Assembly: GCF_003574965.1 (NCBI RefSeq)
Contig: NZ_CP032317.1
Coordinates: 3,658,001 to 3,722,000, forward strand
Length of the DNA stretch: 64,000 nt
Source: Hymenobacter oligotrophus
GTDB taxonomy: Bacteria > Bacteroidota > Bacteroidia > Cytophagales > Hymenobacteraceae
Direction: 5' to 3'
Shown here piece by piece: positions 1-64,000 of the stretch. The notes beneath the pieces were generated by a model that saw only the letters and a program-made list of their open reading frames with translations, did no database searches and was not told the DNA's origin. Within the stretch, counting starts at the first letter, position 1. Each line of letters starts with the position of its first letter. The position numbers and the translations under genes are program-made.

Positions 1-652
1 GGCCATTGGTAGCAAGCTGAGCCTTGGCTCCGAAGCCAGATAGCGGCCTGGCCGCAATTAGCTGGCCGTGCTCGTTCACGTCCGCTTGCACAAACACCAG
101 CATCGAGGCTTTCTGCCGACGGGCTGCTTCCGGATAATTTAGGTTGCTTTTCAGATGAGCCTCCAACGCAGCTTGCCCGCCCACGGGCTTGGGCGGATAC
201 ACCTCGGGAGCTGTGCGCGGACCGGCTGGCGGCAGCGGCGGGAGCCGGAACGTAATGGGCAGATTATAAGAGACCGGCACCGCCCGGCCCACTTGCCGGC
301 CCGGCTCCCAAGCCGGCATTAGTTTGATTACCCGAACTGCCTCGTCGTTGAGCAATGGGTGCGGACCTTTCACAACGGTCACGTTTTCCAGAGTGCCGGT
401 TTCGCTCACCACGAAGTTGACAAACACTTTGCCCTCGATGCGCTGCCTGAGAGCTTCCTCCGGGTATCTGAGGTTCTGACCCAGATACTCCCACATGGCG
501 TCCATACCTCCCCGAAAATAGGGCTGTTGCTCCACAACGGTGTACACCGCGTTGCGCGTCGTTGTCCCCGATGCGCCGGAGTTAACTGATTGACCTAGGG
601 CGGCAAAAGTCACGAACAACCCAGCACCGCAGAATAGAGAACGTAATAACAT
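1..652 (-). CDS. TonB C-terminal domain protein, two domains, cut by left edge
   Basis: The reading frame is open from ATG at 652 to the left edge, so the C-terminus lies outside. The N-terminus (MLLRSLFCGAGLFVTFAALG) looks like a signal peptide or anchor. Two TonB_C-like units follow, each with the pattern YPEEA..RQ..EGKV.V.F.V...G: one begins near residue 50 (NLRYPEEALRQRIEGKVFVN) and one near residue 150 (NLNYPEAARRQKASMLVFVQ). Such proteins link proton-motive force to TonB receptors, or act as stand-alone periplasmic TonB-like proteins. It lies just downstream of asd with a terminator between, so it is probably transcribed separately. Function by family; its partner receptor is unknown. 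Confidence 0.75.
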   Translation of the reverse strand, partial: MLLRSLFCGAGLFVTFAALGQSVNSGASGTTTRNAVYTVVEQQPYFRGGMDAMWEYLGQNLRYPEEALRQRIEGKVFVNFVVSETGTLENVTVVKGPHPLLNDEAVRVIKLMPAWEPGRQVGRAVPVSYNLPITFRLPPLPPAGPRTAPEVYPPKPVGGQAALEAHLKSNLNYPEAARRQKASMLVFVQADVNEHGQLIAARPLSGFGAKAQLATNG

Positions 653-657
653 AGCCA

Positions 658-700
658 CAAAAAAAGCCCGGATACGCCAGCATTTGGGCATATCCGGGCT
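658..700 (-). terminator. Rho-independent terminator of asd
   Basis: Arms AGCCCGGATA (665-674) and TATCCGGGCT (691-700) form a 10-bp stem, followed on the minus strand by a run of seven T (658-664). It lies just after the asd stop. The T run ends only five bases before the ATG of the downstream TonB gene. Confidence 0.85.
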
Positions 701-717
701 CAAATTTTCACTCGAGC

Positions 718-4747: not shown

Positions 4748-5152
4748 ATGAAAATTCTGTCACCTTCCGCCCACGGCGTGCTCGACTACATAGTTTCCAT
4801 GTTCTTCATCATGGCTCCGCTGCTGTTCGATTTGCAGCACCCGTACTCCACGGCGTTCTATACGTTGGGGGTTGGCTACCTGCTGGTTGCGCTGCTCACC
4901 GACTATCCGCTCGGCTGGATGCGCGTTATTCCGTTTCCGCTGCACGGGGCCATGGAGCTGGTGAGCGGTCTGGTGTTCATTGCGTTGCCGTTCATTTTCG
5001 GCTTCTCCGATACCGAACCGGCCGCCCGTAACTTGTTTATCGGCTCGGGCATTGCCTTTGTGCTTTCGTGGTTGGTTACCGACTGGAAAGCCGCGCACGG
5101 CCACAGCCGCACCGGTACCCTGCTCACCGACGCCGGCGAAATGCGCCACTAA
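4748..5152 (+). CDS. Small integral membrane protein, SPW-repeat-like
   Basis: A protein of 134 residues starting at ATG 4748 (MKILSPSAHGVLDYIVSMFF). A longer frame from 4622 exists, but its extra N-terminus is not membrane-protein-like and overlaps intergenic DNA. Four hydrophobic segments are visible: about residues 10-27, 38-52, 62-80 and 92-108. The opening SPxxHGxxDY pattern is seen in small Bacteroidota membrane proteins often assigned to the SPW repeat family. No catalytic motif is seen. It stands alone between a repeat-bearing spacer and a bidirectional terminator. Function unknown. Confidence 0.65.
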   Translation: MKILSPSAHGVLDYIVSMFFIMAPLLFDLQHPYSTAFYTLGVGYLLVALLTDYPLGWMRVIPFPLHGAMELVSGLVFIALPFIFGFSDTEPAARNLFIGSGIAFVLSWLVTDWKAAHGHSRTGTLLTDAGEMRH

Positions 5153-5171
5153 GCAACCCTGCCTGCAAACC

Positions 5172-5209
5172 AAAGCGGCCGGACTACCCTAGGTGGTCCG
5201 GCCGCTTTT
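5172..5209. terminator. Bidirectional terminator with CCTAGG in the loop
   Basis: AAGCGGCCGGAC (5173-5184) pairs with GTCCGGCCGCTT (5196-5207), followed by TT. The loop holds CCTAGG (5188-5193). It lies between two convergent genes. Confidence 0.8.
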
Positions 5210-5235
5210 ATGTATCGGCACCTAGGGCCTCGGGG

Positions 5236-6093
5236 CTAGCGCCGCACCGTAAAGCCCACAAAAAACTCGCGGTCCATTTCGCGGTTCAGGGCAAAGTGCC
5301 CGCCGAAATCGAATTGCAGGTTGTCGGTGAAGTTGATGATGGGCGCCACGTTGATGGAGCTGCGCCAGCCCGAGTGCTGCGCGTCCCACTTCGTCACGCC
5401 CTCGAGCAGCAGCGAGAGTTTGTCGTTCACTTCGTAGTCGACGGCCACCGAGGGCATCACGCGCAAAAAGTGCTCGGCGGCGTCGCGGTCGTAGTTAACG
5501 TCGGCAATCAGCTGGGTTTCAAGGTTCCACTTCTGGCCAATGTGCCAATCGACGGGCAGCACCACGCCGCCCTCTACGCCGCCGCTGCCGGCCGCGCCGC
5601 CGGTGGGCAGGCGCACAAAGCCTACCACCGCCACGGCCACCGGACCCTCTTGGTCGTCGCCGATAAAGTTGTGCTTCAAGCGCACCGAAAGGTCGCCAAA
5701 GCCGCGGTTGCTGCGCCACGTGGGCTCGTCGGCCATGCGCTCCTTTAGCACGGTGTAAAGCGGTGCTTCCAGCTGCACATCGGTGCGGCGCCACAGGCCC
5801 AGCTTGGCCGTTACGTAGGCCGCTTTCCATTGCCGTTCGCGCTTGTCGTCGTCGCGGCGGTTTATCAGGCGCAGTATGTCGGTTTCTACCTGCAGGTGGC
5901 CGGCATCCACGGTAAAGGGGCTTTCCGTTACGCCGGGGCGGTCGGGGCGCAGCTCGCGCAGTTGGTTGCGCGGCACGGGTTTAAACAAGTGAAATCGGGC
6001 CGAGTCGTACGGCGACGATGCGGGGCCGCTGGCTTGGGCGTGCGCCGAGGTGCACCAAGCCAAAGCGGCCAGCAGGCAAATAATGCGGTACAT
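5236..6093 (-). CDS. Outer-membrane transporter, phenol-degradation MetA-like family
   Basis: A 285-residue beta-barrel protein with a signal peptide (MYRIICLLAALAWCTSAHAQ). The segment LRPDRPGVTESPFTVDAGHL is the hallmark opening of the Phenol_MetA_deg (PF13557) porin-like family. Alternating hydrophobic strands run through to a terminal strand ending in an aromatic-rich segment (REFFVGFTVRR). Family members are presumed outer-membrane channels for small hydrophobic molecules, but most Bacteroidota members are untested. It follows a TonB receptor on the same strand with about 100 bases between, so they may share a transcript. The link to metal uptake is only by location. Confidence 0.7.
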   Translation of the reverse strand: MYRIICLLAALAWCTSAHAQASGPASSPYDSARFHLFKPVPRNQLRELRPDRPGVTESPFTVDAGHLQVETDILRLINRRDDDKRERQWKAAYVTAKLGLWRRTDVQLEAPLYTVLKERMADEPTWRSNRGFGDLSVRLKHNFIGDDQEGPVAVAVVGFVRLPTGGAAGSGGVEGGVVLPVDWHIGQKWNLETQLIADVNYDRDAAEHFLRVMPSVAVDYEVNDKLSLLLEGVTKWDAQHSGWRSSINVAPIINFTDNLQFDFGGHFALNREMDREFFVGFTVRR

Positions 6094-6198
6094 GGTTGAG
6101 GGAAGGAATGAAGGGGTTTTGCCCCCGCATACGCTTCTGCTTGCAAACCGGGTAACGCGCCGGTGCAGCTAGGGCGCAAATAGGGCGCAAGTCGGTAT

Positions 6199-8463: not shown

Positions 8464-8492
8464 AGCGTATTTAGGAGCGACGGCGTTTGTTA

Positions 8493-8508
8493 TTTAGGCG
8501 AGTCTAAA
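8493..8508 (-). promoter_or_regulatory. DtxR/MntR-like operator before the TonB receptor
   Basis: TTTAGGCGAGTCTAAA matches 11 of 14 core bases of the DtxR-family box TTAGGTTAGCCTAA and has the same 16-base layout as the site before mntH. It lies 30 bases upstream of the receptor start. A further half-site TATTTAGG is at 8468-8475. Confidence 0.55.
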
Positions 8509-8523
8509 ACCCGCATCGGGCGC

Positions 8524-8561
8524 AAAAAAACGGAGCTGCCCTAGGTGGGCTGGCTCCGTTT
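8524..8561 (-). terminator. Terminator of mntH containing CCTAGG
   Basis: On the minus strand, ACGGAGC pairs with GCTCCGT and a run of T follows. CCTAGG (8540-8545) lies in the upper part of the hairpin. It separates mntH from the receptor gene, so these are two transcription units. Confidence 0.8.
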
Positions 8562-8568
8562 GAGGGGT

Positions 8569-9957
8569 TTAGCCGAAGAACGTTTCGTACAGCAGGTATG
8601 CGTTGAGGGCAATGATGATGGCCGATACCGACCACGCTACCACCTTCACCCAGGGCTTGTTGGCAAAGGGACCCATCTTCAGCTTGTCGCCGGTAAATAG
8701 CACCAGCGGTACCACGGCAAAGCTTAGTTGCAGCGACAGGATTACTTGGCTGAGTACCAGCAACTCGCCGGTGCCTTTTTCGCCGTACAGCAGCGTTACC
8801 ACAAAGGCCGGTACCACAGCAATCAGGCGCGTAATGAGGCGGCGCAACCAGGGCTTTAGCTTCAGGTTGAGGAAGCCTTCCATCACGATTTGGCCGGCCA
8901 AAGTGCCCGTAAGGGTCGAGTTTTGGCCCGAAGCCAGCAGCGCTACGGCAAACACCACGCTGGCCGCGCCCGCGCCCAGCACCGGGGCCAGCAGCTTGTG
9001 CGCGTCGTGAATATCAGCCACCTGAAACAGCCCGTTGCGGTGAAAGGCCGCGGCGGCCAGCACCAGAATGGCGGCATTCACGAAGAAGGCCATAAACAAG
9101 GCCACCGACGAATCGATGGTAGCGAATTTGATGGCCGAGCGTTTGCCTTCTTCGTCGCGCTCGAAGGCGCGCGTTTGCACAATGCTGGAGTGCAGGTACA
9201 GGTTGTGGGGCATTACGGTGGCCCCCAGAATGCCAATGGCCACGTAGAGCATGGCCGGGTTCGTCACGATTTCGGTTTTGGGTACCAGGCCGGCCGCCAA
9301 AGCTGCCCAATCGGGCCGCGAAACAAATACTTCGTAGGCAAAGCAGCCGAAAATGATGAAAATGAGGCCTGCTACCAGCACTTCCAGAATGCGGAAACCC
9401 CGGTTTTGGAAGTACAGTACCACCAGCACGTCGAGAATCGTAATGAGTACGCCCAGCGTGAGGGGAATGCCGAACAGCAGGTTCAGGGCAATGGCCGAGC
9501 CGATTACCTCGGCCAAGTCGCAGGCGGCAATGGCAATTTCGCACAGCAGCCACAGGGCCATGGCCACCGGCTTGGAGTAATGGTCGCGGCAGGCCTGGGC
9601 CAGGTCGCGGCCGGTTACAATGCCGAGCTTGGCCGCCAGGTGCTGCAGCAACATGGCAAACAGGTTCGAAATCAGGATTACCGACAGCAGCGTGTAGCCG
9701 TAGCGCGAGCCGCCGGCAATGTCGGTGGCCCAGTTGCCGGGGTCCATGTAGCCCACGGCCACCATCAGTCCCGGGCCCCAAAACGCCATCAGCTTGCGCC
9801 AAAACGAAGCGTTGCGGCCCGGCACCCGAATAGAGGCGTACACCTCGCCCAGCGAAGGCGCGTGCCGCGGGCGGCGCCAGCCCGGGTCGGCGGCTTCGGG
9901 CGCGGGCGCGGCGGCTAGCGGAGCAACGGGTGGGGTAGGGGTATTGGCAGTAAGCAT
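8569..9957 (-). CDS. mntH: Nramp-family divalent metal importer MntH
   Basis: Inner-membrane proton-coupled importer of Mn2+ (and Fe2+), 462 residues with about 11 membrane segments. The metal-binding Nramp motif in helix 1 is present ([18 protein letters not shown]), as is the helix 6 motif [13 protein letters not shown] 9957 is preferred to a TTG one codon upstream. The N-terminus has a proline/alanine-rich cytoplasmic tail of about 45 residues. The gene is divergent from a CDF exporter and upstream of a TonB receptor. A near-perfect DtxR/MntR-type box lies 37-56 bases before the start, so repression by replete metal is likely. Confidence 0.93.
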
Positions 9958-9993
9958 CAAGTCGATAGGAGATGTCGGGGCAAAGGACGCTAA

Positions 9994-10127: not shown

Positions 10128-11126
10128 ATGTTTGCATCCAAACGCAACCGCTTCGGCCTGCTTTCCTTGGTGGTGAGCGTGGTGCTAGTGGTTACCAAGT
10201 TTTATGCTTGGGCACTTACGCACTCGCAGGCTGCCCTCACCGACGCGCTCGAATCCATTATTAACGTATTTACGAGCGGTTTTGCCCTCTACAGCATTTA
10301 CCTTTCGGGCCTGCCCAAAGACGAAAATCACCCTTACGGCCACGGCAAGGTGGAGTACCTGTCGGTGGGTTTTGAGGGGGCGCTGATCCTGGGTGCCGGG
10401 GTGTATATTTTTTCCAGCGCCATACAGGCCTTGCTGCATCCGCACACGGTGCAGCAACTCGATTGGGGCGTGCTGCTGCTGGGCGGCACGGCCGTGGCCA
10501 ACCTGCTCACGGGCTTTGTGCTGGTGCGGCAGGGCCACAAGCTACATTCGCCGGCGCTGGTGGGCGATGGGCAGCACCTGTACCTCGATGCCGTAAGTAC
10601 GCTCGTGTCGTGCGCGGCCCTAGGGCTGGTGTACTTTACCGGGCTGGTCATCTTCGATACGGTAGCGGCGCTGATCCTGGGCGTGGTAATCGTGGTGAAC
10701 GGCTACCGCATGCTGCGCCGCTCGGTATCGGGGCTAATGGACGAATCGGACGTGGCCACGGTGGAGCGCGTAATTGCCGAGCTGCAGCAGCACCGTCAGC
10801 CGCCCTGGATTGATGTGCATAACCTGCGCATTGTGCGCTACGGCGCCAACCTGCACATCGATTGCCACATTACCATTCCGTACTATTTCAGCCTTGAGGA
10901 AGCCCACGCCGAGGTTTCGCGCATCGAGGAGCTGATCCGGAGCCGCTTTGACGTAGAGGTGGAAATGTTTGTGCACGCCGACCCCTGCACCTTTAGCGCT
11001 TGCCCGCACTGCTCCATGCCTGATTGCCCGGTGCGCCAACACGCCTTCACCCGCCTTGTACCCTGGACGCTCGACAACGTGGTGAAAAACGAGCGCCACC
11101 AACTCGACGAACCCACAACCGCCTAG
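10128..11126 (+). CDS. Cation diffusion facilitator (CDF) metal exporter
   Basis: Inner-membrane metal/proton antiporter of about 332 residues. ATG 10128 is preferred to TTG 10119. Six hydrophobic segments are followed by a cytoplasmic domain (from about residue 205). The helix 2 site reads TDALESIIN, so the usual second aspartate is Ser with Glu one position before. Helix 5 keeps the HxxxD site (HLYLDAVST). The C-terminal tail has a Cys cluster (CTFSACPHCSMPDCPV) that may bind metal. It is divergent from mntH, giving an import/export pair around one operator. The metal (Mn, Fe or Zn) cannot be told from sequence. Its TAG stop is formed by a CCTAGG copy (11122). Confidence 0.85.
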   Translation: MFASKRNRFGLLSLVVSVVLVVTKFYAWALTHSQAALTDALESIINVFTSGFALYSIYLSGLPKDENHPYGHGKVEYLSVGFEGALILGAGVYIFSSAIQALLHPHTVQQLDWGVLLLGGTAVANLLTGFVLVRQGHKLHSPALVGDGQHLYLDAVSTLVSCAALGLVYFTGLVIFDTVAALILGVVIVVNGYRMLRRSVSGLMDESDVATVERVIAELQQHRQPPWIDVHNLRIVRYGANLHIDCHITIPYYFSLEEAHAEVSRIEELIRSRFDVEVEMFVHADPCTFSACPHCSMPDCPVRQHAFTRLVPWTLDNVVKNERHQLDEPTTA

Positions 11127-11163
11127 GTCACCTAGGGCTGCCCTTCCGGCGCTTCGCCCGCCC

Positions 11164-11467: not shown

Positions 11468-11499
11468 CGTTCTTCCTCTCTTGCAAATGGGCGCGGCGC

Positions 11500-22925: not shown

Positions 22926-23077
22926 AAGTCGAGAGGAAAAGCAATGGGTATGCTGCCCTAAACGCAAGCTCCGCAGTAGGGTTGAGCCCGGCCGCTGGCC
23001 CTAGGTGCGCCAGCCAGGCGCCGGGCACCTAGGGCAGCTTTCGCAGCCAACCACTGATGTGCTTTCCCGATTTTCGG

Positions 23078-26161: not shown

Positions 26162-27301
26162 CTATTTCAGAATGGTACGGGCAATAACGAGCTTCTGGAT
26201 TTCGGAAGTACCCTCGCCGATGGTGCACAGCTTAGAGTCGCGGTAGAACTTTTCGGCCGGGTAATCTTTGGTGTAGCCGTAGCCGCCAAAAATCTGCACT
26301 GCCTCGTTCGACACGCGCACGCACACCTCCGAGGCGTACAGCTTGGCCATAGCCGACTCGCGGTTTACGTTCAGGCCTTGGTCCTTCATGTCGGCCGAGC
26401 GGTACGTTAGCAACGACGCTGCTTCGATTTCCGTCGCCATATCGGCCAATTTAAAGCTGATGCCCTGGAAATTGCTGATCGGCTGGTTGAACTGATGACG
26501 CTCCTTGGAGTACTGCAGTGCTGCCTCATAAGCGCCTTGTGCAATACCTAGGGAAAGGGCGGCAATGCTGATGCGGCCGCCGTCCAGCACTTTCAGAGCC
26601 TGCACAAATCCGTCGCCAACCTTGCCAATCACGTTTTCCTTAGGAACACGGCAATCGGTGAAGATCAATTCGGTGGTTTCGGAAGCGCGCATGCCCAGCT
26701 TGTCTTCTTTGCGGCCAGCCGCAAAACCCGGCGTGCCTTGCTCAATGATGAAGGCCGTCATGCCGTGGGAGTCGCCTACCTCGCCGGTGCGGGCAATTAC
26801 CACGGCTACGTTGCCGCTTTTGCCGTGCGTGATAAAATTTTTGGCTCCGTTCAGCACAAAATAGTCGCCATCGAGCACAGCCGTGGTGCGCATGTTGCCG
26901 GCGTCCGAACCAGTGTTGGGCTCGGTCAGACCCCAAGCGCCAATCCACTCGCCCGAGGCAAGCTTGGGCAGGTACTTACGCTTTTGCTCCTCCGAGGCGT
27001 GCTGCAAAATGTGGCCCGTGCAAAGCGAGTTGTGTGCCGCCATCGACAAGCCAATGCTCGGGTCAATCTTCGACAACTCGGCAATTGCCGTAACGTACTC
27101 GGTGTAGCCAAAACCGGCTCCACCGTACTCCTGCGGCACCAATACGCCCATCAGGCCTAGCTCGCCGAGCTTGTGAAATACCTCAACGGGAAACTCCTGC
27201 GTCTCATCCCACTCGCGCATAAACGGCTTGATGTGGGTAGCGCCGAAGTCGCGCACCATCTGGGCAATCATTGTCTGGTTTTCAGTAGCTACCAGTTCCA
27301 T
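26162..27301 (-). CDS. Acyl-CoA dehydrogenase
   Basis: FAD enzyme for the first step of fatty-acid or branched-chain acyl-CoA oxidation, 379 residues. ATG 27301 ([20 protein letters not shown]) gives the normal length; the frame to 27367 adds a non-conserved tail. Diagnostic segments are [17 protein letters not shown] (about 127-143), a family signature, and [19 protein letters not shown] near the C-terminus with ...GEGTSEIQ closing. The catalytic Glu is not assigned with certainty. A TetR/PsrA-like palindrome 47-60 bases upstream suggests control by acyl-CoA availability. Confidence 0.92.
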
Positions 27302-27347
27302 GGAAAAGTGATTGTTGTGGGAATGACGGGGAGGTGGGGCTGTAAAA

Positions 27348-27361
27348 CAAACGCTCGTTTG
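27348..27361. promoter_or_regulatory. PsrA/TetR-like operator before the acyl-CoA dehydrogenase
   Basis: CAAACGCTCGTTTG has 6-bp arms around CT. It fits the PsrA consensus (G/C)AAAC-N2-4-GTTT(G/C), a TetR-family site that controls beta-oxidation genes in Pseudomonas. A -7-like TACCTTCG (complement of 27369-27376) lies next to it. Confidence 0.5.
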
Positions 27362-27467
27362 GTTCAAGCGAAGGTACGAATCTCGGCGCCTTTTGTCCTA
27401 CTTTAAAAGTTGCGGGTTGCGGATCTGGTTTTGAAAGGGAACTTCAATTCGGTTTCTTTGAATTTTA

Positions 27468-27528
27468 TTTGGGAATAATCCGCCCTTAGCTACGTTTTAG
27501 AGCCGACATTTTTCGTTTCTCGTCGGCT
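27468..27528 (+). promoter_or_regulatory. Promoter and 5' hairpin of the exopolysaccharide operon
   Basis: TTTG (27468-27471), 19 bases, then TACGTTTT (27491-27498), close to TAnnTTTG. The inverted repeat AGCCGAC (27501-27507) / GTCGGCT (27522-27528) would start at the predicted transcript 5' end, as an mRNA-protecting hairpin or an operator. Confidence 0.45.
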
Positions 27529-27542
27529 GGCTTTCGAAATAC

Positions 27543-28490
27543 ATGCATCTACACTCCGCCTTGCGTCTGTTTTTCCTGTTTTTGTTGGTGGCTTGCTTAG
27601 GCAGTTGCGCGTCATCTCGGGCCTATAAGCAAAACATCATGTTCAGGACCAGCCGGGGCACGCAGCCGGATACAGCTCGGCTACGGGGGGCCCTGTCACA
27701 AGCCGAGTCTATATATCGTATTCGCCCCAACAACTACTTAGAGGTACGGGTTTACACCAACCAAGGTGAGCGGCTGATAGATCCAAATGGCGAATTAGGC
27801 TTCGGAGCACCCGGTGGCGGGGTTGGGGCCAACACTGGCAACAACAATCGCCTCAACCGCTTGCCCGCCACGCAAGGCCGCGGCGTGCAACAAGGTATTG
27901 GCCAGGGCGGCGCTGGAACTCCAGCCTCTACCGACTACTTGGTATACCCCGACGGCGCCGTGGTGCTGCCTATCGTTGGGCGAGTTGCCATTGCAGGCCT
28001 AACTGTGCGCCAAGCCGATAGCCTTTTGCGCATTCGGTATGACGAATACTATAAAGGTTCATTTGTACAAACACGTGTAACCAACAACCGCGTGTTTGTG
28101 CTGGGTACGCCCGGCGGGGCAGTAGTACCTATGCTCAACGAAAACATGAACCTCTTGGAGGTACTAGCTTTGGTAGGAGGGGTTGACGGCGGTTTTGGTG
28201 GTGGGGGAGGCGGTCAATTCAGGGGCGGAGGAAAAGCTTTCAACATTCGGCACATTCGCCCCGAGCCAGATGGAACGCTTGACCGCGCGCAAGTGTCTGT
28301 AATTGATTTGACTACGATAGAAGGTATGCGCCGCGCCAACCTTGAGGTTAAGCCCAATGACATCGTGTACATTGAGCCGCTTCGTCGTCCCTTCTTCGAA
28401 GCATTGCAAGATATCGGGCCAATACTTGGGCTCGTAACCAGCATTACCGGATTCGTGACGACGCTCGTCTTGATCAACAATCAAAACTAG
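27543..28490 (+). CDS. Wza-like polysaccharide export lipoprotein
   Basis: Outer-membrane polysaccharide export protein of 315 residues, partner of the Wzc-like kinase next door. The N-terminus is a lipoprotein signal with lipobox LGSC (Cys about residue 22). The Poly_export segment is visible (YRIRPNNYLEVRVY), then DYLVYPDGAVVLPIVGRVAI and a SLBB-like part. The C-terminus has a hydrophobic helix (GPILGLVTSITGFVTTLVLI). A Gly/Asn-rich insert of about 45 residues (about 82-128) splits the export domain, and a second Gly run (FGGGGGGQFRGGG) lies near residue 222; both look like low-complexity loops. Confidence 0.87.
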   Translation: MHLHSALRLFFLFLLVACLGSCASSRAYKQNIMFRTSRGTQPDTARLRGALSQAESIYRIRPNNYLEVRVYTNQGERLIDPNGELGFGAPGGGVGANTGNNNRLNRLPATQGRGVQQGIGQGGAGTPASTDYLVYPDGAVVLPIVGRVAIAGLTVRQADSLLRIRYDEYYKGSFVQTRVTNNRVFVLGTPGGAVVPMLNENMNLLEVLALVGGVDGGFGGGGGGQFRGGGKAFNIRHIRPEPDGTLDRAQVSVIDLTTIEGMRRANLEVKPNDIVYIEPLRRPFFEALQDIGPILGLVTSITGFVTTLVLINNQN

Positions 28491-28552
28491 GTTTTAATTA
28501 AGCTTTAGTTTTAAAGGAGACAAGCAAGCATTTGCGGCCTGAAAAGAGTTTT

Positions 28553-31003
28553 ATGGCAATAGATAAAGAAGCCGAGTTGGAAGAACTAATCCGATCGGCT
28601 GGCAGTACGGAAGGGCAGGAAGAAGAAACCGACACTGCGTTTGATATCTCCACATTGCTGATGGTGGTTCGCCGCAGCCTGCCGTGGATGATTTTGCTGG
28701 TGCTTTTGGGTGTAACTGCTGCATGGTTGTATTTACGTTACACCCAGCCAATTTATCAATCGTCATCAACTCTGAAGATCGACCAAAAAACTCAAACAGC
28801 AGTATTGGGTTTAGGGGCTGTGGGTGGAGCTGCCGAAGCGCAGCAAAATTCTAAAAATTTGGCCGGTGAGGTTGAGTTAATTAAATCTAATATTATTTAT
28901 CGTAAGCTTCAGGATAGTCTTAATTTAAATGTCGGGTATTTTGTTGAAGGAACAGTTCTGGCTAATGAGTTATATACAGACACGCCTTTCAGAGTTCAGT
29001 ATAGTACTAAAGATGGTTTTTTATTTAACAAAAAAATATATATAAATTTCATCGACGAACAACATTTTTTGCTTTTGTATCGAAAAAACGACGTAGAACA
29101 AAAAGTAAATGGTAAAATCAATCAAACCCTGAATATAGAGGGTTCGTCTATTTCTGTTTATTCTACTAATAAATCGCCCCAAGCTGGGGTTAATTATTAC
29201 TTCGTAATTCACGACGATGCAACTGTTTGGGGTTATATAGGTGAGAATCTTACTGTTGAAATCATCAACCCCGAAGCCAATACTATTGGCATTTCTTTTA
29301 AAGATCATAATCCAGGCAAGGCCAGAGATATTGTCAATAAAATTGATACATTATATCTACAGGAAAAGCTTGCAAAAAATTCGTTGGCGACTCAGCAAAC
29401 ACTGGCTTTCCTAGAAGGCCAGCTGGATGAAAATAGGAATAAACTGCAGGGAGCCGAAGTGGCGTTACAGGAATTTGTACGCCGCAACAAAACCTACGAC
29501 GTAAAGTCGGACGTTGCTAATATTGCTGAGAAGATGGCCGCGTTGCAGGAAGAGCGGGTGGAATTGCAACGCAAAGCGGGGGCTTTAGCGGAAGTAGCCA
29601 GCTTAGTACAGCAAAACCGCGTGCTGACACGCGAGGGCGAAACCATTGAGCAGAGTATTCCAGCCTTGACCGTGTTGGAAGATGCTCAACTAAGTCAGCA
29701 AATTGCCCTGCTTAACGATCAGCAAGCGGATTTGAATCGTGTACTGGAATCTTATAAATCAACTACTACAGCGGTTCAAATTAAGCAAGAGCAGCTAGAT
29801 TATACGCGCCGCAGCATCGGACGACTTTTACAACAAGCCCGGCAGCTGTTGCAATCAGAATTAGCGGAACTCGATCGACAGCAACGTGAATTTGAGAGCC
29901 GTTTGCAATTGCTGCCCGAAAAAGAAACCGAGCTGGCTCGGCTGCGTCGGCCGTTTGAACTATACGAGAAGTCATATTTGATGCTGATGGACAAAAAAGT
30001 CGAGTTCAGCATTCAGAAAGCGGGTACCACACCCGATTTCCAGATTCTGTCGCCGGCTTCGTTGCCCACCGCTCCAATTTCGCCTATTAAAATAATGGTG
30101 TACGCCATTGGTTTAGCGGCCGGTATTGGTTTAGGCTTAGGTTTAGTAGCTGTGCGGTTCTTGTTGCACAACTCAGTTTCTAGCCTTCGCGAGTTGGAAA
30201 GTGGTTCTGTTGCTCCAGTGTTGGGTGTTGTACCTTCTTATGACAAAGAAAAACTTACGGTATCCAAACTCATTGTAGATAAAAATCCGAAATCAGCTAT
30301 TTCGGAAGCAATACGCTCAATCAGAACTAACCTCGAGTTTTTAGCGCCATCCAGGCATAAGCGATTAATATCTATTACCTCTACCATATCGGGCGAGGGC
30401 AAGACGTTTGTTGCTGTCAACTTAGGTGGGATTATAGCTTTATCCGATCAACGCGTAGTTATCATCGATTTGGATATGCGTAAGCCTAAGGTAAACTTGG
30501 CGTTTGAGGCTGAGAACACCAAGGGCGTCAGCACAATCCTAATTGAGCGACATACGGTACAAGAATGCATTCAACGTACCAGTATTCCGACGCTGGACTT
30601 TATTTCGGCAGGACCAACTCCGCCCAACCCTTCTGAGCTTATTCTGCACCCGCAATTCGATCGGATGTTGGAAGAGCTTAAGCAGCAGTACGACGTTGTA
30701 ATTATCGATACACCGCCGGTTGGATTGGTAACAGATGGGGTGCTGATTATGCGCAAAGTGGATATTCCGATCTACATTGTGCGGGCTGGGTATTCTAAAA
30801 AGACATTCCTGAAAAATATTAATAAGCTGGTTCGCGGTAGCGGCTTTACGAAGCTGACTACTATTTTGAACGATGCACAATCGGGCGGAGCCTACGGCTA
30901 CGGTTATGGTTACGGCTACGGTTACGGCACTGGTTATGGGTATTACGAGGAAGAGAAAGCACCAAAAGGATTGCTAGCACGGTTGCGTCGCCGCTTTTCG
31001 TAA
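28553..31003 (+). CDS. Wzc-like polysaccharide co-polymerase with BY-kinase domain
   Basis: Inner-membrane chain-length regulator and tyrosine kinase, 816 residues from ATG 28553 (TTG 28532 is also possible). An N-terminal Wzz domain with first membrane helix (LPWMILLVLLGVTAAWLYL) is followed by a long coiled-coil region, a GNVR-like segment and the second helix (IMVYAIGLAAGIGLGLGLVA). The kinase has Walker A ISGEGKT (Lys617), Walker A' VVIIDLDMRKP and Walker B DVVIIDTPPVG. The tail has nine Tyr in YGYGYGYGYGYGTGYGYY, the autophosphorylation cluster. The periplasmic part is strikingly AT-rich (about 30% GC in the 60 bases from 29041), unlike its neighbours, and has no CCTAGG. Confidence 0.92.
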   Translation: MAIDKEAELEELIRSAGSTEGQEEETDTAFDISTLLMVVRRSLPWMILLVLLGVTAAWLYLRYTQPIYQSSSTLKIDQKTQTAVLGLGAVGGAAEAQQNSKNLAGEVELIKSNIIYRKLQDSLNLNVGYFVEGTVLANELYTDTPFRVQYSTKDGFLFNKKIYINFIDEQHFLLLYRKNDVEQKVNGKINQTLNIEGSSISVYSTNKSPQAGVNYYFVIHDDATVWGYIGENLTVEIINPEANTIGISFKDHNPGKARDIVNKIDTLYLQEKLAKNSLATQQTLAFLEGQLDENRNKLQGAEVALQEFVRRNKTYDVKSDVANIAEKMAALQEERVELQRKAGALAEVASLVQQNRVLTREGETIEQSIPALTVLEDAQLSQQIALLNDQQADLNRVLESYKSTTTAVQIKQEQLDYTRRSIGRLLQQARQLLQSELAELDRQQREFESRLQLLPEKETELARLRRPFELYEKSYLMLMDKKVEFSIQKAGTTPDFQILSPASLPTAPISPIKIMVYAIGLAAGIGLGLGLVAVRFLLHNSVSSLRELESGSVAPVLGVVPSYDKEKLTVSKLIVDKNPKSAISEAIRSIRTNLEFLAPSRHKRLISITSTISGEGKTFVAVNLGGIIALSDQRVVIIDLDMRKPKVNLAFEAENTKGVSTILIERHTVQECIQRTSIPTLDFISAGPTPPNPSELILHPQFDRMLEELKQQYDVVIIDTPPVGLVTDGVLIMRKVDIPIYIVRAGYSKKTFLKNINKLVRGSGFTKLTTILNDAQSGGAYGYGYGYGYGYGTGYGYYEEEKAPKGLLARLRRRFS

Positions 31004-31020
31004 GTTGCGGTAATACACGC

Positions 31021-31776
31021 ATGGCTTCCTTCCTTCAAAAGCTTTTTGGGCGGCGAAACAACGCAGCGGAACTTGCATTCGCTGAGTTAGGTACGGATAT
31101 GCACTCGCACTTGCTGCCGGGCCTCGACGACGGCTCGGAGTCGGTGGAGCAATCGGTGGAGTTGCTACAAGCCATGGAAGCCCTGGGCTACCGCAAACTG
31201 GTGATGACGCCCCACATCATGGGCGATTTTTACCGCAACACGCCCTCTGGTGTGCACGCGGCGTTGAGCCAGCTGCAACAAGCCGCTACCGCAGCCGGTT
31301 GTACAGTAGAGCTTGCCTGCGCCGCCGAGTATTATCTGGATGAGTCGCTGACGCGCAAATTGGCCGCCGGCGAGCAGCTGTTGAGCTTCGGTGGCGATAA
31401 GCGCTATTTGCTGTTCGAAACGTCGTACATCAACGAGCCTTTCAATTTGCAAGAAGCTGTTTTTGAGATGAAAGCAGCTGGTTACCAGCCGGTACTGGCC
31501 CACCCGGAGCGGTATACTTATTTATACGGCCGGTTTGCCGAGTTGGAGCGGATTCGGGAGGGCGGAGTGCTGCTACAGCTAAACCTGAATTCGCTGGTAG
31601 GGTATTACTCTTCCGGGGCGAAACGCGTGGCCGAAAAACTGATCGATGCCGGATTGGTTGACTTTGCCGGCACTGATGCGCACAACCTTAAGCACACCAA
31701 CTCGCTTCAGCGGGTGCTACAGAGCGAGTACGTAGGCAAATTGTTGCGCTTGCCGCTGCTCAACCGCGAGTTGTAG
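31021..31776 (+). CDS. PHP-domain protein-tyrosine phosphatase (CpsB/YwqE-like)
   Basis: Cytoplasmic metal-dependent phosphatase of 251 residues expected to dephosphorylate the Wzc-like kinase. PHP metal-binding motifs are clear: DMHSHLLPGLDDG (about 27-39), MTPHIMGDFY, VLAHPERY (about 159-166) and GTDAHN (near residue 220). It starts 17 bases after the kinase gene, so the three genes form a kinase/phosphatase/export operon. Glycosyltransferases, Wzx and Wzy are not in the window. Confidence 0.88.
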   Translation: MASFLQKLFGRRNNAAELAFAELGTDMHSHLLPGLDDGSESVEQSVELLQAMEALGYRKLVMTPHIMGDFYRNTPSGVHAALSQLQQAATAAGCTVELACAAEYYLDESLTRKLAAGEQLLSFGGDKRYLLFETSYINEPFNLQEAVFEMKAAGYQPVLAHPERYTYLYGRFAELERIREGGVLLQLNLNSLVGYYSSGAKRVAEKLIDAGLVDFAGTDAHNLKHTNSLQRVLQSEYVGKLLRLPLLNREL

Positions 31777-31811
31777 TAAACGCAACACACCTACTGGTCC
31801 TTTCTGAGCTA

Positions 31812-32825
31812 ATGATATTTGTAACGGGCAGCAGCGGCTTAATTGGTTCGTACCTGATACCGGCGCTGCTGGCCCGTGGCTTTGCCGTGCGGGCGTTGTA
31901 CCGCGAAAAAATACCCGGCCACGTGCAGGGCGCTGCGCAGGTAGAATGGGTGGAAGGCGACTTGCGCGACTCTGGGGTGCTGCGCGAGGCCACGGCCGGC
32001 GTAACGCACGTTTTTCATTGCGCCGGGCTGGTGTCGTATGCGCCGCAAGACGGCGAACTGCTGCGGCAAGTGAATGTAGAAGGTACCGCTGCCGTGGTAG
32101 ATGCGTGCTTGGCGCGCCCGGGCATACGGCTGTGCCACGTGTCGTCGGTGGCGGCGCTAGGTGGGTTACCGGCCACGGCTACTGGGCCCAAGCTCGACGA
32201 AAAGGCCAAATGGGACCTAGGGGCCGCGCACCCGGCCTATGCCACCTCCAAATACCTAGGCGAAACAGAGGTGTGGCGAGGGGTAGCCGAAGGCCTTTCG
32301 GCTGTTATCGTCAACCCCGCGGTAATACTAGGCGCTACCAACTGGGAGCGGAGCAGCACCCAACTGTTTCGGTACGCCTACAAAGAGCATTCGTTTTACA
32401 CCCCAGGAAGCGTTAATTTTGTAGATGTACGCGACGTGGTGGAAGCCATGCTGCGCCTGACATTTGAGCTTGACGTGACGGGCGAGCGGTACATTTTGAG
32501 TGCCGGTGCCCTGCCGCTGATCGAGTTTTTTCGGCAGGCAGCGGCTTGCTTCGGTAAAAAGCCTCCGACGGTGCAGGTACCCGATTGGGCCGCCGAAATT
32601 ATCTGGCGGTTCGAGCACGTCCGGGGCGTGCTCACCGGCTCGCGGCCGCTCATCACCAAAGACACGGCCCGGGCGGGCCGCCGACCGGTGGTGTACCAGG
32701 CCGCGAAGGTGCAGCAAGCTACTGGCATGCGTTTCCGACCACTCCCGGAAACAATACAGTGGGCCTGCGCCGGTTTGATGGCTGCTCCGAACTCCACGCC
32801 CGCCAGCGGGGTTGTACAACCCTAG
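31812..32825 (+). CDS. NAD-dependent epimerase/dehydratase family protein
   Basis: Extended short-chain dehydrogenase of 337 residues. It has the nucleotide motif TGSSGLIG (residues 5-12), a catalytic YxxxK (YATSK, near residue 147) and SSVAALGG before it. It resembles dihydroflavonol reductase / sugar epimerase-type enzymes; substrate unknown. It lies 35 bases after the phosphatase gene and may be part of the same transcript, but codon use and two in-frame CCTAGG copies match the core genome, unlike the exopolysaccharide genes. Its TAG stop is inside a CCTAGG copy (32821). Confidence 0.85.
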   Translation: MIFVTGSSGLIGSYLIPALLARGFAVRALYREKIPGHVQGAAQVEWVEGDLRDSGVLREATAGVTHVFHCAGLVSYAPQDGELLRQVNVEGTAAVVDACLARPGIRLCHVSSVAALGGLPATATGPKLDEKAKWDLGAAHPAYATSKYLGETEVWRGVAEGLSAVIVNPAVILGATNWERSSTQLFRYAYKEHSFYTPGSVNFVDVRDVVEAMLRLTFELDVTGERYILSAGALPLIEFFRQAAACFGKKPPTVQVPDWAAEIIWRFEHVRGVLTGSRPLITKDTARAGRRPVVYQAAKVQQATGMRFRPLPETIQWACAGLMAAPNSTPASGVVQP

Positions 32826-53814: not shown

Positions 53815-53840
53815 CCCGAGTTGCCATTGCCCGCATACAG

Positions 53841-53876
53841 CAACGCCCTAGGTAAGCACCTAGGGCGTTGTTTTTT
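53841..53876. terminator. Terminator built from two CCTAGG copies
   Basis: CAACGCCCTAGGT (53841-53853) pairs exactly with ACCTAGGGCGTTG (53858-53870), four-base loop, then TTTTTT. Each arm contains one CCTAGG, an inverted motif pair forming the stem. Confidence 0.9.
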
Positions 53877-54897: not shown

Positions 54898-54903
54898 AGA
54901 ATG

Positions 54904-60985: not shown

Positions 60986-60989
60986 GGCG

Positions 60990-61534: not shown

Positions 61535-61555
61535 AGGCCGATGGGCAGTGGCTGC

Positions 61556-62635
61556 CTAGCGGAACGAAATGTCGCCCGGAATCAGGCCGACGCCGAACGA
61601 GTCGATAGCCGTGCCAGCGCTGTTGTACCGAATGGCTTTGCCATCGGCGGTGTACGAACCTAGGGCGCCGTACAGCTCGCCGTCGGTCGGGTCGACGTTG
61701 ATGACCATGAAGCTGCGGCGCACAAACGGGGCCGTGGGCAGAGCGGTGGCCGAGCTGGGCATGCGGTACACAGCGCCGCCGTAGCGGTAGTATAACTGCG
61801 CGCCGTTGGGCGACACGCTTAGGTCGGCCGCTCCGCTCGAGGCAAACGTGAGGGTTTGGCGCGTAGCCGGGGTGGCGGGCGCAAAGCGGTGCAGCGCAGC
61901 CGGCGTTTTCGAGAGAACCGGGTAGTTGGGCGCGCCGCCGTAACGGGTAATGCCGCCGCACAACACCCACAGGTTGCCGTCAACGTCCTTTACTAGGTTC
62001 TGCGGGCCGTCGGTAAAGGTGAGCGTGGCTTCGGCCGCGTCGGTGGCGGTGTTGATAACGGTTACGGAGTTCTCGTCGGAGTTGGGCACGTACAGCTTGC
62101 CGTTGGCCAGCAAGGGTTGCTCGGGGTTTCGGCCCACGTCGATGGTTTTGGTAACCTGGTAGGTGTTCAGATCGATAACCGACACACGCCCGGCAGTGTA
62201 GTTGGGGTAGCTGCCCTGCCACTCGGTTACATATGCCTTGTTGGCGGGGCCGGCCACTAGGTAGCGCGGCTGCGAGAGGTTGCCAATTTGGCCCACCGAA
62301 CGGAAGTCGGCAGCGTTTACAATCTCCACTTTGCCGCTGTTGTTGGCCACGATGTACAGCTTATCGCCGATGGGCGTAACCGACTGCACCACGTCGCCGG
62401 CCGCGCGGCCGTTGGCGCGCCGGAAGGGGTCTTTGTCGGCTTGCTTGTTGGGCTTGTCGTAAGCCGTAACCGAGCCGCTGGGCGTGCCATAGTTGCCTTG
62501 GTTGGCCACGTACACCGCTTTGGTTACCTGCGGAGCCGGCTGCTCTTTGTTGTCGTCGGAGGGGTTGCAGGCGCCCAGCAGGAGGGCTGTTGCTACCAGC
62601 GCGGGTAGCCACGGGCGGCGCATCAAAAGTTGCAT
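61556..62635 (-). CDS. YncE/DUF5074-like surface lipoprotein, cobalamin-uptake partner
   Basis: A 359-residue lipoprotein (signal ...WLPALVATALLLGAC). A seven-bladed propeller of the YncE type follows, with repeats such as AVYVANQGNYGTPSGSVTAY, VEIVNAADFRSVGQIGNLSQ and VSVIDLNTYQVTKTIDVGRN PEQPLLANGKLYVPN. In Bacteroidota such DUF5074 proteins sit beside BtuB-type receptors and help to take up cobalamins. It lies 53 bases after the receptor gene on the same strand. The B12 link is by family and position. Confidence 0.78.
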   Translation of the reverse strand: MQLLMRRPWLPALVATALLLGACNPSDDNKEQPAPQVTKAVYVANQGNYGTPSGSVTAYDKPNKQADKDPFRRANGRAAGDVVQSVTPIGDKLYIVANNSGKVEIVNAADFRSVGQIGNLSQPRYLVAGPANKAYVTEWQGSYPNYTAGRVSVIDLNTYQVTKTIDVGRNPEQPLLANGKLYVPNSDENSVTVINTATDAAEATLTFTDGPQNLVKDVDGNLWVLCGGITRYGGAPNYPVLSKTPAALHRFAPATPATRQTLTFASSGAADLSVSPNGAQLYYRYGGAVYRMPSSATALPTAPFVRRSFMVINVDPTDGELYGALGSYTADGKAIRYNSAGTAIDSFGVGLIPGDISFR

Positions 62636-62688
62636 GTTTGCGGAAGTGAGTGTAGTGAAAGAGAATGATGTGGTTCAGCCGGAAGCCA

Positions 62689-64000
62689 CTAGTGCCAACC
62701 TAGGCGCAGGCTCAGCAAAGCCGAGCGGCCAGGCATGGCACGGCCGGCGTAGTTCTGGTAACTTTTGTTGGTGAGGTTATAGCCCTGCACCAAGCCTGTG
62801 AGGGTGTAGCGCCCTAGGTGCATGGTGCGGCCGGCGCTAGCGTGCAGCAAAGCGTAGCCGGGCAGGTAGTCATCGGCCGAGGCGGTAGTGTAGCGGTAGC
62901 CCGTAAACACACCATTAAGGGTAAGCTGCCAATTGCGCCATGCGTGTTGCGTACCCACCGAAGCCGAGTGGAGCGGCACGTAGCGCAACTGATTGCCAAT
63001 GGGGTCGAGGTCGGCGGCGTAGCCGCTTACCTTACGGGCTTGGGTATAGGCGTAAGCCGCCGTGGCGCTAAGCCAGTACCGGCCTAAGTGCAGTTGAGCT
63101 TGCGTACTGGCCTCGAGGCCACGGCTGCGCACGCGGCGCACGTTGCGCGGCGCCAGCGTAGGTGCTTCAATCCACTCTACCCAGTTATCAACCAGTAAGC
63201 TGTAGGCCGTCAGGTCGGCTTGCAGGGCTACGGGCAATTGCGTGCCCAGCAAAGCTTCGTAGTGCAGCCCGCCTTCGTAGCCGACGCCGGTTTCGGGCAG
63301 TAATTCCTGGCGTTCTACACCGCCCCAGTACCGCTCGTTCAGGGTAGGCGCACGGTAGCTCCGGGCCGCGTTGGCTTTCAGCCAGAGCTGCTGTTGCTGC
63401 CTGCGCCACAGCTGGTATTCGGCACCTAGGGTTGGCGCTACGGGGGCGCGCCGGCCGGGCAGCACGGCCTGGCGCGCGTTTAGCGTAAGGCGTAGGCGGG
63501 CCGTGGGGTCGTAGCGCAGCAGGGCAAAGCCGGCGTAGCGTTGCTCGGTAATGTGCCGCCGGTAGCCATCCACATCGGCCACGAAGTGTTGGGCCTCGGC
63601 GCCCAGGCGCAAGCTGGCATTGGGGCGCCACTGCAGGGTGTGCTCGGCTTGGGCCTGCCACACCACCGTAGCCGAGTTGCTGGGCTGTACATTGTCGTTG
63701 TAGTAGCGAATATTGTCGGCGAAGCGGGCGGCGCGCACGGTGGTTTCGCTGTGGGTTCCGCGCCGGCGGTAACCCAGTACCACCCGGCCGCTCTCATCCT
63801 GCTGGCGGGCGTGTGCATCAACCGAACCAACGGATGGCTGAATTTCGCGGTCGGAGCGGGTAAACCACGCCGCACCCGTTAGCTCGGCTTTAGGGCTGAG
63901 CTGCAAGCTGAGCTGCTGCGTAAAGCTGCTTTGCTGCAACGCTGCGCTGGCTTGGCGCCGCCGTACGGGGCCACCGAAGTCGAGAGCGGTGTACGGGAAG
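62689..64000 (-). CDS. BtuB-like TonB-dependent receptor, C-terminal part, cut by right edge
   Basis: The frame is open to the right edge, so the N-terminal plug is outside. The visible 436 residues are barrel: QQSSFTQQLSLQLSPKAELT, NARQAVLPGRRAPVAPTLGA, ARSYRAPTLNERYWGG (a motif typical of BtuB/FepA-type receptors), VRSRGLEASTQAQL and the end ALLSLRLGWH. The start ATG shown by a short frame at 63939 is not real; it is a TTG inside the gene. Paired with a DUF5074-like lipoprotein, cobalamin is the likely substrate. Confidence 0.82.
   Translation of the reverse strand, partial: FPYTALDFGGPVRRRQASAALQQSSFTQQLSLQLSPKAELTGAAWFTRSDREIQPSVGSVDAHARQQDESGRVVLGYRRRGTHSETTVRAARFADNIRYYNDNVQPSNSATVVWQAQAEHTLQWRPNASLRLGAEAQHFVADVDGYRRHITEQRYAGFALLRYDPTARLRLTLNARQAVLPGRRAPVAPTLGAEYQLWRRQQQQLWLKANAARSYRAPTLNERYWGGVERQELLPETGVGYEGGLHYEALLGTQLPVALQADLTAYSLLVDNWVEWIEAPTLAPRNVRRVRSRGLEASTQAQLHLGRYWLSATAAYAYTQARKVSGYAADLDPIGNQLRYVPLHSASVGTQHAWRNWQLTLNGVFTGYRYTTASADDYLPGYALLHASAGRTMHLGRYTLTGLVQGYNLTNKSYQNYAGRAMPGRSALLSLRLGWH

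What the first reader, a model, noticed from the sequence alone, without database searches (positions are those of the whole stretch)
594..63430. CCTAGG is a highly iterated palindrome with a biased flank (ACCTAGG)
About 94 copies by hand count against about 20 expected at 60% GC, in a domain of life where CTAG is usually avoided. About 86 have A on one side, 60 of them as ACCTAGGG/CCCTAGGT, split nearly evenly between strands. In genes, the copies checked force rare codons CTA (Leu-Gly) or AGG (Pro-Arg). Spacing (about one per 680 bases) is like HIP1 in cyanobacteria or uptake sequences in Neisseria/Haemophilus. It could be a DNA-uptake or self-recognition signal, a methylation/repair target, or a chromosome-organising site. 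I know of no description for this group.
Basis: partly seen in the sequence, partly recalled or inferred. Interest (0 to 1): 0.85.

Follow-up and report, generated by a model that had tools for sequence, protein, structure and literature searches.

The report
Genome-wide DNA watermark with species dialects
Bacteria of the Hymenobacter family carry thousands of copies of a short DNA word that differs from lineage to lineage and is missing from the small plasmid-like contigs sampled here, which looks most like a self-recognition tag for DNA exchange of a kind I could not find described for this group.

Summary
The window has exactly 94 CCTAGG (21 expected from base composition, 12 from a second-order Markov model). 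The word is not a true palindrome: 88 of 94 read ACCTAGG on one strand, followed by G (60) or C (23); the full palindrome occurs once. The whole genome has 5,341 ACCTAGG against 37 for the reversed control. Sites are held while surroundings diverge: in two sister species Leu codon CTA stays CTA in 43/49 and 35/46 cases inside the motif, 27/80 and 18/79 outside. Five poor genus-mates keep 1 of 94 site alignments. The motif is absent from 50 kb of small plasmid-like contigs and from a low-GC capsule block in the window. It is one of at least eight lineage dialects (ACCTAGGS, ASCTAGST, CCCTAGGS, GGGGTAGGG, ACTGGCCTAG, AAGTATAA, AGGTATAG, AACTATAG), all fitting NNSTAKNN; one genus reaches 1 copy per 250 bp. 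Dialect sites are enriched about twofold in noncoding DNA and sometimes paired in terminator hairpins. Searches for cytosine-5 (PF00145) and beta-class amino (PF01555) methyltransferases and type IV pilus ATPases (PF00437) found none in this genome. Best reading: a DNA-uptake-type self-recognition signal with an unknown, pilus-independent receptor (0.5). The receptor was not found.

The parts
594..63430 (.). Array of 94 CCTAGG sites. Starts: 594, 965, 2154, 2388, 2874, 3168, 3450, 4221, 4438, 5188, 5221, 6674, 7796, 8318, 8540, 10619, 11122, 11131, 11252, 11873, 12442, 13450, 14162, 14381, 14965, 15874, 16021, 16842, 17542, 17592, 18343, 20390, 21605, 21731, 22023, 23000, 23028, 25036, 25809, 26547, 32216, 32255, 32821, 33328, 33532, 35401, 35842, 36064, 36386, 38100, 39349, 40016, 41112, 41385, 41901, 42354, 43467, 43887, 44177, 44714, 44962, 45104, 45147, 45564, 46337, 46930, 47226, 49183, 49237, 49282, 49891, 50281, 52034, 53847, 53859, 53997, 54411, 54609, 55661, 56000, 56104, 57437, 57750, 57928, 59092, 59128, 59863, 60523, 61028, 61510, 61659, 62699, 62813, 63425
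   Evidence: Direct count. 88 of 94 are ACCTAGG on one strand.
53839..53876 (+). Intrinsic-terminator-like hairpin: inverted pair CCCTAGGT/ACCTAGGG in a 15-bp stem (one G-U pair) with a 4-base loop; a run of six T overlaps and follows the 3' end of the stem
   Evidence: Sequence; fold -26.5 kcal/mol, z -7.75; both motifs of the pair are present in G200 and G203
11122..11136 (.). Close inverted pair of motifs (opposite orientation)
23000..23033 (.). Close inverted pair of motifs within an approximate GC-rich inverted repeat
26553..32215 (.). Motif-free block of 5.66 kb. It holds Wza-type export (27543-28490), Wzc-type (28532-31003) and CpsB/CapC (31021-31776) genes. GC falls to 0.42-0.47 between 28 and 31 kb, and identity to G200/G203 to 67-80% between 28 and 32 kb, against 84-92% around it. 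Read as imported DNA that has not acquired the motif

Best explanation
ACCTAGGS is the local dialect of a DNA-uptake-type self-recognition signal in the Hymenobacter family. Inferred mechanism: a surface or periplasmic DNA receptor recognises an 8-10 bp word centred on S-TA-K. DNA carrying the word enters and recombines preferentially, so homologous exchange spreads and keeps copies wherever coding constraint allows (synonymous positions, noncoding DNA, terminators). When the receptor's specificity shifts, the word is replaced and a new dialect appears. Shown: the copies, equal strand totals, asymmetry of the word, conservation above matched controls, differences from relatives of many kinds, noncoding enrichment, dialects, absence from sampled plasmid-like contigs and from an imported block. 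Inferred: that the word is read during DNA uptake, and that recombination drives it. Not found: the receptor.
For: Genome: 2,671 forward and 2,670 reverse ACCTAGG vs 16/21 reversed control. Patchy in the family (204 genomes): thousands in 3 of 8 genomes of genus g1 (G000, G200, G203) and in G023, G029, G081, G097, G116 of g4; tens to hundreds elsewhere. Conservation: sites exactly kept 63/80 (G200) and 56/82 (G203), other 7-mers 43% and 45%, same-composition 7-mers 1852/4225 and 1861/4203. Codon-matched: CTA in motif 43/49 and 35/46, outside 27/80 and 18/79; noncoding sites 16/21 and 16/23, background 0.32. Five poor genus-mates: 1 of 94 ungapped site alignments intact, 59 of 94 with 2-3 differences, over all seven positions and all 21 possible changes. 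Dialects; whole-genome check of one set, ARSTATAR: 40 of 50 genomes of genus g6 at 3x or more the reversed control (maximum 16,572 vs 1,046), none of 154 others above 1.4x. Noncoding 303 observed vs 152 expected over 17 genomes. Terminator hairpin with inverted motifs in the window, similar pairs in G027 and G178. Small plasmid-like contigs: 0 ACCTAGG in 50 kb vs 27 in 20 kb of chromosome. ComEC, the DNA-translocation channel, in 203 of 204 family genomes. Same anatomy as Neisseriaceae DUS: dialects with a shared core, inverted pairs at terminators, a few thousand copies (PMC3630211, passages); mobile elements recognised by atypical DUS distribution (PMC7371117, abstract). Self-DNA preference exists in Bacteroidota: Riemerella columbina (PMC7965970, section 16).
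Against: None of the 19 iterated genomes searched has a type IV pilus/T2SS ATPase over cut-off (38 of 39 genomes lack one, the exception G009 is not iterated; some have weak sub-threshold matches), so the known ComP route is not there. The Riemerella-type outer-membrane competence protein has no match in any of the 8 g1 genomes and no strong one in the 13 iterated g4 genomes, yet it is in 6 sampled g4 genomes where I saw no word (G016, G018, G019, G022, G030, G055); in g6 it shows no association (13 of 15 positives and 27 of 35 negatives are motif-rich). ComEC is universal, so it does not discriminate. R. columbina itself shows only a weak word (GCCGTAG 37 vs 10.4, CCGTAG 100 vs 43.9 in 160 kb). 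The excess of inverted pairs is seen only in the ACCTAGG clade (G000 6 of 8, G200 6 of 8, G203 3 of 6), not in other dialects. Density in some g6 genomes (1 per 250 bp) is above the DUS counts seen. No transformation of these species was found in the papers seen.
Confidence: 0.5

Rival explanations
1. The word is the binding site of a chromosome-wide DNA-binding protein (nucleoid, replication, repair or segregation function). Weak selection at each site keeps thousands of copies; plasmids are too young or do not need it.
For: Near-palindromic dialects, conservation and absence from small contigs fit. Very high copy number in g6.
Against: A chromosome function should be stable within a genus, but 5 of 8 genomes of genus g1 and most of g4 lack the ACCTAGG word, and no word was assigned in 44 of 70 sampled genomes (detection limit of about 20 kb each). 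Selection on more than 5,000 sites each is demanding. Terminator pairs are not expected.
Confidence: 0.3
2. HIP-like site created or kept by a DNA methyltransferase (with or without methyl-directed mismatch repair), as Elhai proposed for cyanobacterial HIPs.
For: Alternate HIPs in cyanobacteria go with matching methyltransferases (PMC4390886, abstract and section 3.4 part 1). CCTAGG is a known restriction site (AvrII; recalled).
Against: Of eight motif-rich genomes, four (G000, G029, G097, G116) lack both PF00145 and PF01555; the others have one or both (G203 and G023 have PF00145; G200, G203 and G081 have PF01555). The G000 word is asymmetric and another dialect is a 10-bp asymmetric word, unlike usual type II methyltransferase sites. 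Small contigs in the same cell have no sites. Alpha- and gamma-class N6 families (PF02086, PF02384, PF07669) were not searched.
Confidence: 0.08
3. Chi-like signal for RecBCD/AddAB.
For: Short words with lineage variants, over-represented. Whole-genome strand totals cannot show a replichore bias, because the two halves cancel; one local stretch is skewed (G203, 64 to 38).
Against: Local counts in other stretches are near even: window 47/42, G200 60/50, G196 26/32, G178 36/32, G173 16/16. ASCTAGST is palindromic. The strong local skew of GGGTAGG in G012 and G027 goes with gene sense (13 sense/43 antisense, 4/30). Chi is usually strand-biased and sparser (recalled).
Confidence: 0.06
4. Mutational bias, a very-short-patch-like repair, or codon-pair bias; no function.
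For: Most genic sites use one codon frame (53 of 60). In sister species two transitions, T4 to C (20) and A1 to G (14), make 34 of the 71 differences.
Against: Noncoding sites are enriched and conserved; the remaining differences lie at all seven positions, 19 kinds in sisters and 21 in poor relatives; identical CTA codons outside the motif are not conserved; small contigs lack sites.
Confidence: 0.04

Closest known systems
DNA uptake sequence (DUS) dialects of Neisseriaceae and USS of Pasteurellaceae
   Same: Short words in thousands of copies, mostly in genes through permitted codons, noncoding enrichment, inverted pairs in terminators, dialects sharing a short core, atypical distribution in mobile elements
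   Different: No type IV pilus ATPase over cut-off, hence no ComP-type route, in the 19 iterated genomes searched; different phylum; core S-TA-K instead of CTG; some dialects palindromic; copy number up to 16,572; uptake not shown
HIP1 and alternate HIPs of cyanobacteria
   Same: Iterated (near-)palindromic octamers, replaced by alternates in some lineages; HIP density about one per kb (PMC4390886 section 3.4)
   Different: Asymmetric word in the window genome; no PF00145 or PF01555 methyltransferase there; motif missing from sampled small contigs; inverted terminator pairs
Riemerella natural transformation machinery (T4P-independent)
   Same: Same phylum; ComEC present; R. columbina prefers its own DNA (PMC7965970 section 16)
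   Different: Its outer-membrane protein has no match in g1 and no strong one in motif-rich g4 genomes; R. columbina has only a weak over-represented word
Chi sites
   Same: Short over-represented words differing by lineage
   Different: No consistent local strand skew in the ACCTAGG and ARSTATAR samples; some dialects palindromic; denser (recalled comparison)

Membership tests
DNA uptake sequence (DUS/USS) | Thousands of copies of a fixed short word, on both strands | tested here: met
   2,671/2,670 vs 16/21 control; window 47/42
DNA uptake sequence (DUS/USS) | Dialects in related species sharing a core | tested here: met
   At least eight words fitting NNSTAKNN
DNA uptake sequence (DUS/USS) | Noncoding enrichment | tested here: met
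   303 vs 152 expected over 17 genomes, 16 of 17 above 1 (crude gene calls)
DNA uptake sequence (DUS/USS) | Inverted pairs at terminators in high numbers | tested here: inconclusive
   Clear hairpin at 53839-53876 and single cases in G027 and G178, but pairs are few: (-,+) 6 of 8 in G000, 6 of 8 in G200, 3 of 6 in G203, no excess in other dialects
DNA uptake sequence (DUS/USS) | Atypical (here absent) in recently acquired DNA | tested here: met
   0 in 50 kb of small plasmid-like contigs; imported capsule block
DNA uptake sequence (DUS/USS) | Type IV pilus with a DNA-binding minor pilin (ComP) or equivalent machine | tested here: not met
   PF00437 not over cut-off in any of 19 iterated genomes searched
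DNA uptake sequence (DUS/USS) | Word raises DNA uptake or transformation | not testable with these tools
   Needs an uptake assay
HIP (cyanobacterial) | Iterated palindromic octamer | tested here: not met
   ACCTAGGT, the full palindrome, is 1 of 88 in the window; the ASCTAGST dialect of G023/G116 does contain palindromes
HIP (cyanobacterial) | Matching DNA methyltransferase in the genome | tested here: inconclusive
   PF00145 and PF01555 absent from G000; other classes not searched
Chi | Strand bias with replication | tested here: inconclusive
   Local counts mostly near even, one stretch 64/38; replichores were not mapped
Riemerella-type competence | RS04915-like outer-membrane protein next to DUF5689 lipoprotein | tested here: not met
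   Profile A1: no match in G000 or any of the 8 g1 genomes

The most novel reading that the evidence does not exclude
A whole bacterial family in Bacteroidota uses a pilus-independent, sequence-specific DNA-uptake (self-recognition) system whose receptor has repeatedly changed specificity around a conserved S-TA-K core, watermarking genomes with 5,000 to 16,000 lineage-specific words: a third, independent origin of uptake sequences with a new receptor type.
Probability: 0.42. Interest if true: 0.95.

Novelty: new variant of a known kind. Interest (0 to 1): 0.85.

Why it matters
Uptake sequences are established, as far as I recall, only in Neisseriaceae and Pasteurellaceae, both with type IV pili. 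A family-wide set of dialects without a pilus ATPase would show that sequence-specific DNA exchange evolved separately in Bacteroidota. It would put the reported self-DNA preference in that phylum in a wider setting and give a natural series of dialects for finding the receptor. If instead the word has a chromosomal role, it is a strong non-cyanobacterial case for solving what highly iterated words do. It also gives a simple marker: motif-free blocks may flag imported DNA.

Tried and rejected
DUF5689 (PF18942) as the receptor: a 430-aa class occurs in all five motif-rich g4 genomes, but in the 18 such loci looked at it sits after SusC- and SusD-sized genes and near phosphatase-like and glycerophosphodiesterase-like genes (recognised by eye, not by family search), and it also occurs in genomes where I saw no word. 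Rejected.

Riemerella outer-membrane protein (profile A1): distribution does not follow the motif. Rejected for g1/g4.

Type IV pilus ATPase, C5 methyltransferase, beta-class amino methyltransferase: none in the window's genome.

A strong iterated word in R. columbina: only GCCGTAG 37 vs 10.4 in 160 kb. A first look at rRNA-linked stretches was dominated by rRNA repeats and discarded. Zunongwangia mangrovi showed TGCTGAA 46 vs 9.9 in 40 kb, no TA core; not followed. No R. anatipestifer sequence was fetched, so the equation of the R. columbina operon with RS04915/RS04920 rests on domains and gene order.

Literature: CCTAGG+Hymenobacter 0 papers; DNA uptake sequence+Bacteroidetes 5; Bacteroidota+natural transformation+uptake+outer membrane+ComEC 2; two of Hymenobacter/uptake sequence/competence 158, 10 listed; uptake signal sequence+Bacteroidetes 1; highly iterated+Bacteroidetes 1; two of overrepresented/Hymenobacter/octamer 400, 10 listed. 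No title or abstract start in these listings describes such words in this family. Only open-licence PMC text is covered.

Limits: dialects came from 70 family genomes sampled by stretches of 7.5-98 kb (63, 7 more; recount); a word was assigned in 26 and not in 44. Six genomes were dropped because the fetched contig was under 5 kb (G011, G014, G017, G031, G033, G054). Genes were called by a crude codon score. Labels for G122, G163 and G167 rest on weak scores in the samples.
Full report
Observation. The 64-kb window holds 94 CCTAGG against 21 expected from base composition and 12 from a second-order Markov model; a maximal-order model built on the motif's own 5-mers expects 76.7, because the excess is already in those 5-mers. 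88 of 94 read ACCTAGG on one strand. The next base is G in 60, C in 23, A in 4 and T in 1 of 88, so the element is the asymmetric octamer ACCTAGGS and the full palindrome is avoided. The window is part of a 4.19-Mb genome with 2,671 forward and 2,670 reverse ACCTAGG; the reversed control gives 16 and 21. ACCTAGGG alone occurs 2,980 times against 1.

Distribution. Over all 204 genomes held for the family, ACCTAGG is in the thousands in 3 of 8 genomes of the window's genus (G000, G200, G203) and in 5 genomes of a second genus (G023, G029, G081, G097, G116; totals count palindromes twice). The others have tens to a few hundred, the highest 666. In an order-wide draw of 390 genomes, 311 of them outside the family, no genome outside the family exceeds 170 ACCTAGGG.

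Selection or drive. In two sister species (87% identity) sites are intact in 63/80 and 56/82 cases, against 43% and 45% for all other 7-mers and 44% for 7-mers of the same composition. The codon-matched test is cleaner: CTA stays CTA in 43/49 and 35/46 cases inside the motif and 27/80 and 18/79 outside (Fisher p 9e-10 and 7e-9). Noncoding sites are intact in 16/21 and 16/23 against 32% background. In five poor genus-mates, over the parts that aligned, 1 of 94 ungapped site alignments is intact (3 more had gaps); 59 of 94 differ at 2-3 places, and all 21 possible single-base changes occur. Against this, in the sisters two transitions (T4 to C, A1 to G) make 34 of 71 differences, so a mutational contribution is not excluded; a single mutation or repair reaction is.

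Where it is missing. Three small contigs of the same genome (42, 32 and 11 kb), sampled for 50 of about 85 kb, have no ACCTAGG; a 20-kb chromosomal stretch has 27. Plasmid nature is supported for C2, by eye for C3, and was not examined for C4. In the window the largest gap (26553-32215) has about a 2% chance under random spacing and is a capsule export block with GC down to 0.42 and identity to the sisters down to 67%, i.e. probably imported DNA.

Dialects. Markov-corrected octamer counts on samples of 70 family genomes show that relatives carry other words: ACCTAGGG (G081, G097), ASCTAGST (G023, G116, G029 in part), CCCTAGGS (G065), GGGGTAGGG (G012, G037, G027), ACTGGCCTAG or GTGGCCTAG (G034, G130, G036; weaker in G122), AAGTATAA (G196, G150, G147, G173, G191; weak G167), AGGTATAG (G178, G193; weak G163), AACTATAG (G164). 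All fit NNSTAKNN. With the window's clade that is 26 of 70; in 44 no word was assigned. A whole-genome count of ARSTATAR over 204 genomes (recount) confirms the last three: 40 of 50 genomes of genus g6 are at least 3-fold over the reversed control, up to 16,572 vs 1,046 (one per about 250 bp), while none of the 154 genomes of the other five genera exceeds 1.4-fold. Ten g6 genomes are low, 0.95-2.8-fold (G154, G160, G174, G176, G180, G182, G183, G184, G188, G194). Strand totals in the 40 differ by at most 9% (G150).

Anatomy. Over 17 genomes, 303 sites are noncoding against 152 expected (crude gene calls, 16 of 17 genomes above 1). In genes both orientations occur; GGGTAGG is mostly antisense (13/43, 3/13, 4/30 sense/antisense), as its in-frame TAG would suggest. 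Local strand counts are mostly near even (window 47/42), with one skewed stretch (G203 64/38). Close inverted pairs occur: (-,+) in 6 of 8 neighbours at 7-45 bp in G000, 6 of 8 in G200, 3 of 6 in G203; other dialects show no such excess. The pair at 53839-53876 is a 15-bp terminator-like hairpin with a T run (-26.5 kcal/mol, z -7.75); both motifs are also there in G200 and G203. G027 and G178 have similar hairpins with their own words.

Machinery. Methyltransferases: neither PF00145 nor PF01555 has a match in G000; of eight motif-rich genomes G000, G029, G097 and G116 lack both, the other four have one or both (26 genomes each). Type IV pilus/T2SS ATPase: only G009 of 39 genomes is over cut-off, and G009 is not iterated. 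ComEC is in 203 of 204 genomes, so DNA import is possible throughout, but it does not discriminate. Bacteroidota can transform without pili: in Riemerella anatipestifer a DUF5689/DUF5017 surface protein, a CarboxypepD_reg outer-membrane protein, an HHH protein, a DUF1343 protein, ComEC, DprA, ComF and RecA are essential (PMC8459023, abstract, passages and sections 19-21), and R. columbina prefers its own DNA (PMC7965970, passages and section 16). I located the matching gene pair in seven flavobacterial genomes (domains checked in two) and searched the family with a profile of the outer-membrane protein: 78 of 204 genomes match, but none of the 8 g1 genomes and no iterated g4 genome strongly; in g6 it shows no association with the motif. 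It is therefore not the receptor for ACCTAGGS. R. columbina has only a weak word.

Judgement. The anatomy is that of uptake sequences: thousands of copies, asymmetric words of 8-10 bp in most dialects, dialects on a shared core, noncoding enrichment, some terminator pairs, absence from sampled mobile DNA. Compare Neisseriaceae dialects with a CTG core, inverted pairs at terminators and 2,245-3,603 copies in four genomes (PMC3630211, passages), and mobile elements recognised by atypical DUS distribution (PMC7371117, abstract). It fails one defining feature of the known systems (pilus machine), and uptake is untested, so I call it uptake-like, not a member. The main rival is a chromosome-wide binding site. 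Methylation (Elhai's HIP model, PMC4390886, abstract, passages and section 3.4 part 1), Chi and mutation bias are weaker. Other papers were seen only as search listings.

Noticed in passing
26553-32215: Capsule export block (Wza-, Wzc-, CpsB-like) with GC 0.42-0.57 in a 0.6 GC genome and lower identity to sister species: probably replaced by horizontal transfer.
   Followed up: partly
L370, L371, L372: Small contigs of the window's genome look like plasmids: L370 carries RND metal-efflux and P-type ATPase genes shared with many Hymenobacter plasmids; L371 has an 886-aa conjugation-ATPase-like protein and other transfer-like genes (by eye). L372 was only counted for the motif.
   Followed up: partly
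54903-54976: Single tRNA-Gly (ccc) gene, the only Rfam match of the window at gathering threshold; no CCTAGG start inside.
   Followed up: no
L335, L336: Zunongwangia mangrovi: TGCTGAA 46 vs 9.9 expected in 40 kb, another possible iterated word, without a TA core.
   Followed up: no
L204:9034-10023 (G000): Secreted-looking ~330-aa protein with a weak DUF5689 match between MurB-like and MutS2-like genes (by eye), also in G200 but not matched in G203.
   Followed up: partly
G167:C1:2771217-2771876 and G187:C76:160505-161305: ComEC reading frames with one internal stop in two genomes of genus g6.
   Followed up: no
L206-L223: Recurrent gene order in 18 of 18 loci fetched: SusC-sized, SusD-sized and DUF5689 lipoprotein genes, often followed by phosphatase-like and glycerophosphodiesterase-like genes (by eye).
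   Followed up: partly
L086, L087 (G197): A motif-poor genus-mate has GGCTAGCC 5 times in 40 kb (0.25 expected), a possible weak further word.
   Followed up: no
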